The translations under genes and the position numbers were made by a program. A stretch of 64,000 nucleotides of DNA from the NCBI GenBank assembly GCA_023384575.1, contig JAHDVP010000015.1:1177-65176 (forward strand). The letters are read 5' to 3'. Every line of letters starts with the position of its first letter. Positions within the stretch are counted from its first letter, which is position 1. Under the pieces are notes generated by a model. It saw only the letters and a program-made list of their open reading frames with translations, was not told where the DNA came from and did not search any database. Source of the stretch: Acidobacteriota bacterium. GTDB lineage: Bacteria > Acidobacteriota > Vicinamibacteria > Vicinamibacterales > JAFNAJ01. This document shows, piece after piece, positions 33,780-36,398 of the stretch.

Positions 33780-33807
33780 TTGACACGACATTTTTCTCAT
33801 CCATAAT
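33780..33807 (+). promoter_or_regulatory. sigma-70-type promoter of the twin Lys-rich peptide genes
   Basis: TTGACA (33780-33785) and CATAAT (33802-33807) have 16 bp between them in a markedly AT-rich stretch. This is a strong, near-consensus promoter by the standards of the window. Confidence 0.75.
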
Positions 33808-33844
33808 CTACATCTTGTATGTAGGTGGTTAGCTCAGGCCACCT
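33808..33844 (+). other. tandem hairpins in the leader of the first Lys-rich peptide
   Basis: CTACAT-cttgt-ATGTAG (33808-33824) and AGGTGG-(10 nt)-CCACCT (33823-33844) share two bases at their junction, so they cannot both form completely. They lie at or just after the predicted transcription start and may stabilise the mRNA or switch between states. Confidence 0.45.
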
Positions 33845-33897
33845 GTTGTGACCACTGAGTCGGTCAGGGGCTGGGCGCCGCGTACCAAGGAGGCAGA

Positions 33898-33981
33898 ATG
33901 GCCAAGAAGACCGCGAAGGCCGGCGCGAAGAAGAAGACCGCGAAGGCCGCCAAGCCGGCGAAGACCGCCAAGAAGCGGTAG
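33898..33981 (+). CDS. 27-residue Lys/Ala-rich basic peptide, copy 1
   Basis: MAKKTAKAGAKKKTAKAAKP followed by AKTAKKR: 12 of 27 residues are Lys or Arg, with no acidic residue. The composition matches the tails of histone H1-like and HU-extension proteins of bacteria. AAGGAGG precedes the ATG by four bases, a near-perfect ribosome site. It has a strong promoter and a strong terminator of its own. Likely role (inference): a nucleic-acid-binding peptide, for nucleoid or ribosome. It is too small for most automatic gene calling. Confidence 0.75.
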   Translation: MAKKTAKAGAKKKTAKAAKPAKTAKKR

Positions 33982-33995
33982 TCGCCACCGTGGCC

Positions 33996-34033
33996 GGGGG
34001 TGTCACGGGATCGCGTGCGACACCCCCTGTTTT
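33996..34033 (+). terminator. rho-independent terminator after Lys-rich peptide 1
   Basis: GGGGGTGTC (33996-34004) and GACACCCCC (34019-34027) form a perfect 9-bp stem, followed by TGTTTT. It lies between the two peptide genes, so most transcripts of copy 1 probably end here. Confidence 0.85.
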
Positions 34034-34108
34034 CGATCCGTCGCTCCCGCGCACACGCGGGGCTTCATCACCGTTCGGAACGCTCACACGAAGGGGGGGA
34101 TACGAGTC

Positions 34109-34192
34109 ATGGCAAAGAAAGCCGCAAAGGCCGCCAAGAAGACGGCGAAGAAGGCCGTGAAGGCCGCCAAGAAGACCGCGAAGAAGAAGTAA
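34109..34192 (+). CDS. 27-residue Lys/Ala-rich basic peptide, copy 2
   Basis: MAKKAAKAAKKTAKKAVKAA then KKTAKKK: 14 Lys and 10 Ala among 27 residues. Same length and same opening as copy 1, so the two are clearly paralogues. AAGGGGGGGA lies about eight bases before the ATG. I see no separate promoter in the 75 bp after the first terminator, so expression may depend on read-through. A bidirectional terminator follows. Same proposed role as copy 1, a DNA- or RNA-binding helix or tail. Confidence 0.75.
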   Translation: MAKKAAKAAKKTAKKAVKAAKKTAKKK

Positions 34193-34196
34193 GCGG

Positions 34197-34245
34197 CGTG
34201 TTCCTGAACACGTGAAAAGAGGGGGCGATCGTCGCCCCCCTTTTT
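34197..34245. terminator. terminator (two stems) between Lys-rich peptide 2 and the convergent PPIase gene
   Basis: CGTGTTC-CT-GAACACG (34197-34212) is followed by AGGGGGCGA-TCG-TCGCCCCCCT (34220-34241) and a T-run; AAAAGA precedes the second stem, so it can function on both strands. Confidence 0.85.
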
Positions 34246-34265
34246 GTTGTACCGACGACCGCCGA

Positions 34266-36398
34266 TCAGGGCACCGCCGCGCCCGGCGACACCACGCCGT
34301 CCCAGATCGTCACGCGATCGATCCGATCCCCCTGCACGAGGCGATCGACCACGTCCTGGCCGGCCACCACCCGCCCGAACACCGTGTACCGCGCATCGAG
34401 GTGCGGCTGCGGCCCGTGCGTGATGAAGAACTGGCTGCCGCCGGTGTCGGCCCAGTCGAGGGCCATCCCGACCGTGCCGCGCAGGTACGGGAGCGGGTTC
34501 AGCTCGTCGCGAATCGTGTAGCCCGGCCCGCCCTCTCCGTCGCTGCGCGGGTCGCCGCCCTGCACGACGAAGTTCGGCACCACGCGATGGAACGTCAGGC
34601 CGTCGAAGTACCCGCGCCGCGCGAGCGTGACGAAGTTGTCGACCGTGAGCGGCGCATCGAGCACGGCCAGCTCGATCTGGATGTTGCCCTTGCTCGTCTC
34701 GAGGTAGGCCTGCGGCGAGTACGGCGGCGCGACGAGCCAGGGCCCCCGGTAGCCGGCCGGCTCCCGCGGCGTCGGCGCGGGGCGGATGTCCGACACGTCG
34801 GCCGCGGCGTCCACCTGGCGCAGCAGCTCCGCCGCGCGACGCCGCACCGCCCAGTCGGCGTCACCGAGTGCCTCGACGAGCAGCGCCCGCGCGCCATCCC
34901 CGCCGTACCGGACCCGGGCGGCGAGCGCCGCCGCTCGCGCGACGTACGACGCGTCGGCGCGCCCCGACCGGTAGGCCGCGTCGAGCGCATCCTCGAGGCC
35001 GGGCACGCGCCCCTCGCCGGCGAGCCGCGCCGCCGTGGCGCGCACGACCACGTCTTCGACCGCCAGGTGCTTGCGCAGCAACCCTTCGACGCCGGGCCCG
35101 CCGAGACGGACGAGCAGGCTCAGCACCGTCGGGATCACGCGCCGGTCGGCGTCCTCGAGCATCCGCACCAGCTGCGGGCCGGCGGTCCGCGGATCGGTGT
35201 CGACGATGAGCCGCGCCACCTCGCTCCGCACGCGCCAGTCGCGATCCGGGTCGAGCCCCGACAGCACGACGAGGAAGTCCTGACGGTCGGCGGCGGCAAG
35301 GGCGCGCAACGCGGCCGCGCGCATCACGGGCCAGGGATCGCCCACCAGGTCGTAGAGCCACTCCCGCAGCTCCGGACCCGACGCCCGCAGACGGCCGAGC
35401 GCCGACACGGCCTCGAGGCGCACGTTCGCGTCGAGGCCCTCGTGGCCGAGCAGGTTCACCAGCGGCGTCTCCGCCCGCGCATCGCCGACGATGCCGAGCG
35501 CGCGAATCGCTTCGACGAGGACGCGCGACGGCACGCGATCGGGCGCGAGCAGCTCGATGAGCGGCTCGACGGCCCGCGCCTCCTTGAGGAGGCCGAGTCC
35601 CTTGGCCGCAAACGCGATCGTGTCGGTGCCCCCGGCGCGCACGAGGGCGAGCAACGCCGTCGCGGCCCTGGGATCCTCGAAGCGGCCGAGCGCGTAGGCC
35701 ACCGGCCACCAGCGCACGCGCGGCTCGCCGCGTTCGTCGAGCACCGCCGCGGCGAACGGCTCCCACGCCTTCATCCTCACGAGGGCGTACAGGCCGAGGC
35801 GAAACGCTTCGACCTCGGCGTCGAGCGGATGCGCGAGCTCGTCGATCGCCACCTCGGCCACCCGCCCGCTCGCGACGGCCGCCGCCACCAGACGGCCGAT
35901 CTCCGGCGCGTGCGTCGCCGCGCCGAGCAGTCCCAACGCCTCGGCCGCCCGGCCCCGGACACGCGCGTCGTGATCGTCGAGCATCTCGGCGAGCGCCGGC
36001 GCCGCCTCCTGGTCGCCGAGGATTCCGAGCGCGAAGGCCGCCATCTGCCGCACATCCGTGTCGGCGTCGGCGCGCAGCAGCCGCTCGAGCGGGCCGACGC
36101 CGTCGGAGAGCCCCACGCGACCCACCGCGATCGCCGCGCGGCGCCGCACGCGCGCGTCGGCGTCGCCGAGCAGCCCCAGCAGGTCGGCCACCGGCGGAGG
36201 ACTGCCAGCCACGCGGCGGTCGACGGGCGCGACGGGCGCCGGCGCCGGGTCGCGCAGCACGCGCTGGTCCTCGAGGCGGAGAATCCAGGCGAGCTTGTCC
36301 TCGTAGGGCACTACGGGTGGCGGCGCCGGCGGGGCGCTCGCGCACGCGCCGGCAGCGAGAGTCAGCAGCAGAACACCAGGAAGTCGATTCGCCATCAT
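34266..36398 (-). CDS. HEAT-repeat lipoprotein with C-terminal cyclophilin-type peptidyl-prolyl isomerase
   Basis: 710 residues. Residues 1-20 are a lipoprotein signal peptide (LLTLAAGACAS, Cys near 19). From about 60 to 510 there are HEAT/PBS-like helical repeats (LLGDADARVRRRAAIAVG, LDDHDARVRGRAAEALGLLG, EGLDANVRLEAVSALGRL). The last 170 residues are a cyclophilin: NIQIELAVLDAPLTVDNFV, FDGLTFHRVVPNFVVQGGDP, GGSQFFITHGPQPHLDARY and YTVFGRVVAGQDVVDRL. It is likely an outer-membrane or periplasmic folding factor whose HEAT array binds client proteins. The ATG overlaps the stop of the MenC-like gene (ATGA), so they are co-translated. Confidence 0.9.
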   Translation of the reverse strand: MMANRLPGVLLLTLAAGACASAPPAPPPVVPYEDKLAWILRLEDQRVLRDPAPAPVAPVDRRVAGSPPPVADLLGLLGDADARVRRRAAIAVGRVGLSDGVGPLERLLRADADTDVRQMAAFALGILGDQEAAPALAEMLDDHDARVRGRAAEALGLLGAATHAPEIGRLVAAAVASGRVAEVAIDELAHPLDAEVEAFRLGLYALVRMKAWEPFAAAVLDERGEPRVRWWPVAYALGRFEDPRAATALLALVRAGGTDTIAFAAKGLGLLKEARAVEPLIELLAPDRVPSRVLVEAIRALGIVGDARAETPLVNLLGHEGLDANVRLEAVSALGRLRASGPELREWLYDLVGDPWPVMRAAALRALAAADRQDFLVVLSGLDPDRDWRVRSEVARLIVDTDPRTAGPQLVRMLEDADRRVIPTVLSLLVRLGGPGVEGLLRKHLAVEDVVVRATAARLAGEGRVPGLEDALDAAYRSGRADASYVARAAALAARVRYGGDGARALLVEALGDADWAVRRRAAELLRQVDAAADVSDIRPAPTPREPAGYRGPWLVAPPYSPQAYLETSKGNIQIELAVLDAPLTVDNFVTLARRGYFDGLTFHRVVPNFVVQGGDPRSDGEGGPGYTIRDELNPLPYLRGTVGMALDWADTGGSQFFITHGPQPHLDARYTVFGRVVAGQDVVDRLVQGDRIDRVTIWDGVVSPGAAVP

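What the first reader, a model, noticed from the sequence alone, without database searches (positions are those of the whole stretch)
33898..34192. Tandem genes for two 27-residue histone-tail-like peptides
Two paralogous peptides of exactly 27 residues, MAKK-type with about half Lys and no acidic residue, each have a strong ribosome site and each are followed by a perfect rho-independent terminator; a near-consensus promoter (TTGACA/CATAAT) precedes the first. Such investment suggests high, specific expression, yet they are smaller than most gene-calling cutoffs. They look like free H1/HU-type tails or ribosome-associated basic peptides.
Basis: partly seen in the sequence, partly recalled or inferred. 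Interest (0 to 1): 0.6.

Follow-up and report, generated by a model that had tools for sequence, protein, structure and literature searches.

The report
Conserved tiny lysine-rich peptide genes
Two real, unannotated genes in a soil bacterium (Acidobacteriota, order Vicinamibacterales) encode tiny, almost pure lysine-alanine peptides that are kept in the same place, behind the same strong promoter and leader, across most of the order; they probably coat nucleic acids like a free histone tail, but that role is untested.

Summary
Two 27-residue ORFs, MAKKTAKAGAKKKTAKAAKPAKTAKKR (33898-33981) and MAKKAAKAAKKTAKKAVKAAKKTAKKK (34109-34192), each have a Shine-Dalgarno site and a terminator. A TTGACA-16-CATAAT promoter precedes the first.

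They belong to a gene family conserved across Vicinamibacterales (Acidobacteriota): 72 distinct peptides of 14-52 aa, 48% Lys, never Asp/Glu, 71 of 72 starting MAKK/MAKR, nearly all ending KKR/KKK. They evolve as coding sequence (pN/pS 0.24 in frame, 1.46 and 0.93 out of frame). Promoter and 5' leader are conserved too: 117 of 162 genomes carry the leader, as a single copy except in one genus. The leader likely forms a hairpin/pseudoknot.

A convergent cyclophilin-HEAT gene lies downstream in 149 of 151 testable loci. Similar peptides occur in three further families of the class and sporadically across the phylum with other promoters.

Equal length is a coincidence: length varies freely, while charge and ends are kept. 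No Pfam, NCBIfam or Rfam family matched.

Best explanation: abundant free polycations that bind nucleic acid like an H1 tail. Translation, abundance and binding partner are untested. In one genus the same promoter and leader also precedes ftsZ.

The parts
33780..33807 (+). sigma-70 type promoter TTGACA-16-CATAAT
   Evidence: pattern TTGACA-N15-19-ATAATCTACATC found in 99 of 193 genomes of the class, exactly once each, all within the order, 0 in the reversed-pattern control
33808..33821 (+). conserved box CTACATCTTGTATG spanning discriminator and expected transcription start
   Evidence: near-invariant in 89 unique leaders; CTACATCTAGTATG also at the G128 peptide in another family of the class
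33823..33876 (+). 5' leader RNA: hairpin 33823-33828/33839-33844 and crossing helix 33832-33837/33871-33876 (putative H-type pseudoknot)
   Evidence: 89% of cells paired against at most 47% when slid, compensatory changes at two H1 pairs; RNAalifold picks part of the crossing helix on its own; model R1 finds the leader in 117 of 162 genomes of the order
33887..33893 (+). Shine-Dalgarno site AAGGAGG of gene 1
   Evidence: conserved in relatives
33898..33981 (+). gene 1: MAKKTAKAGAKKKTAKAAKPAKTAKKR
   Evidence: coding selection
33996..34034 (+). intrinsic terminator after gene 1 (GGGGGTGTC / GACACCCCC, then TGTTTTC)
   Evidence: stronger T-tracts at the same place in relatives
34093..34099 (+). 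Shine-Dalgarno-like G run of gene 2 (GAAGGGGGGGATA), conserved
34109..34192 (+). gene 2: MAKKAAKAAKKTAKKAVKAAKKTAKKK
   Evidence: coding selection
34219..34246 (+). intrinsic terminator after gene 2
   Evidence: z -4.7
34266..36257 (-). syntenic marker: HEAT-repeat + cyclophilin peptidyl-prolyl isomerase gene, convergent; start not determined
   Evidence: Pfam; convergent downstream in 149 of 151 testable loci

Best explanation
The locus is a dedicated expression cassette for tiny, disordered polycations. A strong vegetative promoter drives a transcript with a structured leader. One or two (rarely three) ORFs of 14-52 codons are translated into peptides that are about half lysine. Each ORF has its own terminator, so the product is a short abundant mRNA and, presumably, an abundant peptide. 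The peptides act as free histone-H1-like tails: they bind nucleic acid (most likely chromosomal DNA, possibly rRNA or polyphosphate) by charge, with little sequence demand. Shown computationally: genes, coding selection, promoter/leader conservation, synteny, charge conservation with free length. Inferred: high expression, disorder, nucleic-acid binding, nucleoid as the site of action.
For: Frame-specific purifying selection (pN/pS 0.24 in frame; 1.46 and 0.93 in the other frames). Only K, A, G, R, T, V, P and rare S/N/C plus Met; no D/E in 72 peptides; 62 end KKR, 8 KKK. Length and order of residues drift while charge and ends are kept, as expected of a polycation rather than a folded protein. 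The two copies are often identical, so dosage seems to matter. Near-consensus promoter and strong SD. L088 has a 52-aa second gene with a weak Hc2-like match. KPAA-repeat peptides from the AlgP H1-like tail bind DNA in vitro (PMC9239181).
Against: No Pfam or NCBIfam family matches the short peptides. No protein or binding data. The locus is missing from five genera of family f8, some with near-complete genomes, so it is not indispensable. The genome also has four HU/IHF-family matches and an H1-like ORF. A polycation could equally serve ribosomes or polyphosphate.
Confidence: 0.5

Rival explanations
1. Ribosome-associated basic peptides: they bind rRNA as accessory ribosomal proteins, and the structured leader is an autoregulatory site for the peptide, as in ribosomal-protein operons.
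For: Vegetative promoter, structured leader just upstream of the SD, MAKK start reminiscent of ribosomal proteins (own knowledge). In one genus the same promoter/leader precedes ftsZ, a growth gene.
Against: No ribosomal-protein family match. Free length variation and loss in several genera argue against a defined ribosomal site. No link to ribosomal genes; the neighbour is a cyclophilin.
Confidence: 0.2
2. Polyphosphate or other polyanion counter-ion, as with the AlgP tail at polyphosphate granules.
For: H1-like K/A composition shared with AlgP, which localises to polyphosphate granules (PMC9239181).
Against: No granule-binding domain and no polyphosphate gene recognised among the immediate neighbours; composition alone does not separate DNA from polyphosphate.
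Confidence: 0.12
3. The RNA is the product: a structured regulatory RNA whose tiny ORFs are secondary, or gene 1 is a lysine-codon leader peptide controlling termination.
For: Conserved leader, terminator after gene 1, a further conserved GTGCCAGGCGGCAGC element upstream of gene 2 in relatives. In some families gene 1 is gone while the 5' leader remains.
Against: pN/pS is 0.24 in frame only; similar peptides occur where leaders differ. No co-directional gene follows the second terminator: the next gene is convergent in 149 of 151 loci. No Rfam family reaches its cut-off.
Confidence: 0.13
4. Secreted cationic antimicrobial or toxin peptide.
For: Strong positive charge, small size.
Against: No hydrophobic face, no signal sequence, no export, immunity or antitoxin partner seen; kept vertically across an order.
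Confidence: 0.03

Closest known systems
Bacterial histone H1-like proteins Hc1/Hc2 (PF07382, NF038052)
   Same: Lys/Ala-rich, no acidic residues; one 52-aa relative (L088) hits Hc2 weakly
   Different: 14-29 aa as a rule, below every family cut-off, dedicated promoter/leader, tandem copies
AlgP/PhaF KPAA-repeat tails (Pseudomonas)
   Same: Same K/A-rich disordered composition; short KPAA peptides bind DNA (PMC9239181)
   Different: Here the tail stands alone without the 124-aa N-terminal domain, is far shorter and almost proline-free
HU with lysine-rich C-terminal tail
   Same: K/A tail chemistry
   Different: No HU fold; the genome encodes HU/IHF homologues separately
Very small basic ribosomal proteins (e.g. 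Thx/bS22; own knowledge)
   Same: Size and charge
   Different: No sequence-family match, no fixed length, sporadic loss

Membership tests
Histone H1-like Hc1/Hc2 | HMM match above the curated cut-off | tested here: not met
   P1: no hit in Pfam or NCBIfam; P2: none in Pfam or NCBIfam; best relative (L088, 52 aa) 21.5 bits against 40
Histone H1-like Hc1/Hc2 | Lys/Ala-rich, acid-free chain | tested here: met
   K 48%, A 29%, D/E 0 over 72 peptides; disorder itself not tested
Histone H1-like Hc1/Hc2 | DNA binding and nucleoid condensation | not testable with these tools
   needs purified peptide and microscopy
AlgP/PhaF | N-terminal domain plus KPAA repeat tail | tested here: not met
   ORFs are 14-52 aa with no extra domain; AlgP layout from PMC9239181
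HU/IHF (PF00216) | HU fold | tested here: not met
   no Pfam hit
Transcription-attenuation leader peptide | co-directional regulated operon after the terminator | tested here: not met
   next gene is convergent in 149 of 151 loci; control of gene 2 by gene 1 is not excluded
Rfam-described leader or sRNA | match at gathering score | tested here: not met
   no family reaches its cut-off

The most novel reading that the evidence does not exclude
A phylum-level family of free-standing, domain-less chromatin (or ribosome) peptides of 14-30 residues, among the smallest conserved proteins of bacteria, produced in quantity from a dedicated cassette and controlled by its own undescribed pseudoknot leader RNA, which one lineage has also placed in front of ftsZ, linking polycation supply to cell division.
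Probability: 0.3. Interest if true: 0.8.

Novelty: new variant of a known kind. Interest (0 to 1): 0.6.

Why it matters
Gene callers and trypsin-based mass spectrometry are almost blind to such genes (cleavage at every lysine leaves fragments of a few residues), yet here one is conserved across an order, with similar ones across a phylum of abundant soil bacteria. If the peptides are abundant, they are a minimal natural test of what an H1-type tail does without any folded domain. The leader RNA adds an undescribed candidate regulatory element.

Tried and rejected
Profile search of genomes with the peptide alignment was blind (it missed G006, which has the genes), so degenerate DNA patterns were used instead. 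A PDB sequence search gave only designed repeat proteins. Rfam: PrrB_RsmZ at 22.7 bits against a cut-off of 44 over gene 2 was judged chance. MAFFT alignment of the region upstream of gene 2 was too gappy for a covariation test; only the short GCC-loop-GGC element is evident in relatives, and it is not evident in the window. The resemblance of CTACATCTTGT to an NrdR box was considered from memory and not tested. Structure prediction was not attempted, as such peptides are not expected to have a fold to predict. Literature searches found no description of the family in the open-access library; most subscription journals are not covered.

Full report
What is there. The window carries two ORFs of 27 codons (33898-33981, 34109-34192), each with a Shine-Dalgarno site and a terminator, behind the only promoter-like site in the region. 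They are the only lysine-rich short ATG ORFs among 257 in the 64-kb window.

Who has it. The window's genome is G000. Hits in named genomes place the family in Acidobacteriota, Vicinamibacterales (Vicinamibacteraceae, Luteitalea). In the same GTDB family all three other genomes have the cassette, with two or three peptides of 17-28 aa. In the order, 76 of 100 genomes match the promoter-gene 1 stretch. The exact promoter/box pattern occurs in 99 of 193 genomes of the class, once each, all in the order, with no match in the reversed-pattern control. The peptide pattern occurs in 113 of 193, of which one (G128) lies outside the order. A covariance model of the leader finds 117 of 162 genomes, one copy each except in genus g26.

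Are the ORFs coding? Yes, by sequence evidence. 72 distinct peptides and 113 distinct coding sequences were collected. With pairs chosen by nucleotide identity only, pN/pS is 0.24 in frame and 1.46 and 0.93 in the two other frames. Peptides begin MAKK (68) or MAKR (3), end KKR (62) or KKK (8), contain no Asp or Glu, and have a median length of 19.5 aa, range 14-52. Length is free; the equal 27 in the window is coincidence. In many genomes the two copies are identical, which points to dosage. Pairs are related by descent, so these are not independent counts.

Surroundings. A convergent HEAT-cyclophilin gene follows in 149 of 151 loci that hold enough sequence. In three other families of the class (G103, G116, G128) peptides MAAKKKAKKAAKKKK, MAAKKAAKKAAKKKK and MAKKKRAKKAAKKTAKKAAKKKK lie about 0.9 kb from the same cyclophilin gene, so the locus seems older than the order. 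The G128 copy keeps the box as CTACATCTAGTATG; the other two have only loosely similar sequences there. Elsewhere in the phylum, peptides such as MATKKAAKKVAKKAAKKK stand alone behind other promoters and leaders, each with a terminator; whether these are homologous or convergent cannot be told. The cassette was not found in genera g20, g31, g38, g45 and g61 of family f8, and it is absent beside their cyclophilin gene where that was examined.

The leader. Hairpin 33823-33828/33839-33844 is supported by compensatory changes at two pairs (17-36 and 18-35 of alignment A3), and a crossing helix, loop GCTCAG with CTGRGC just before the SD, is 95% paired but varies mostly by G-U. Together 89% of cells pair, at most 47% when slid. 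The number of pairs with double changes does not exceed the shuffles (99 of 500 reach it), while cells with double changes and covariation score do (0 of 500). RNAalifold alone returns only part of the crossing helix, and the window's own minimum-energy fold is different. The pseudoknot is therefore likely, not proven. In four g26 genomes a second copy of the leader was found; in the two examined (G034, G068) it stands directly upstream of ftsZ.

How it most likely works. See best explanation: a cassette for free H1-tail-like polycations. Composition, loss of sequence order, dosage and the in vitro DNA binding of comparable AlgP peptides (PMC9239181) favour a nucleic-acid partner; DNA is put before RNA only by analogy. 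Nothing here measures expression or binding.

Novelty. The short peptides match no curated protein family and the leader no Rfam family. They work, most likely, like H1-type tails but are not members of Hc1/Hc2, AlgP or HU by the tests made.

Noticed in passing
L108 about 955-2300 and L105 (G034, G068; genus g26): The same promoter and leader as at the peptide genes stands directly upstream of ftsZ; a second leader copy was also found in G052 and G060, not examined.
   Followed up: partly
relatives, upstream of gene 2 (e.g. L110, L117, L148): Conserved element GGTGAGCGTGCCAGGCGGCAGCCAC between leader and gene 2, no Rfam match; not evident in the window.
   Followed up: partly
L268-L271 (family f41 of the phylum): Tiny peptides MA[AT]KKK..KKK behind a different, highly conserved leader (GCCAAGTAGGCGCGACCGTGAGGTCCCGTACGGCATGAAAGG).
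   Followed up: no
L088 offset 290 from the promoter box: Second gene replaced by a 52-aa protein MAKTVAKKAAVKK... with a weak Hc2-like match.
   Followed up: partly
G000:C20 about 80279 (L035): Own genome also has a K/A-rich H1-like ORF of about 121 codons.
   Followed up: no
window 33808-33818: CTACATCTTGT over the expected transcription start resembles an NrdR box; untested.
   Followed up: no
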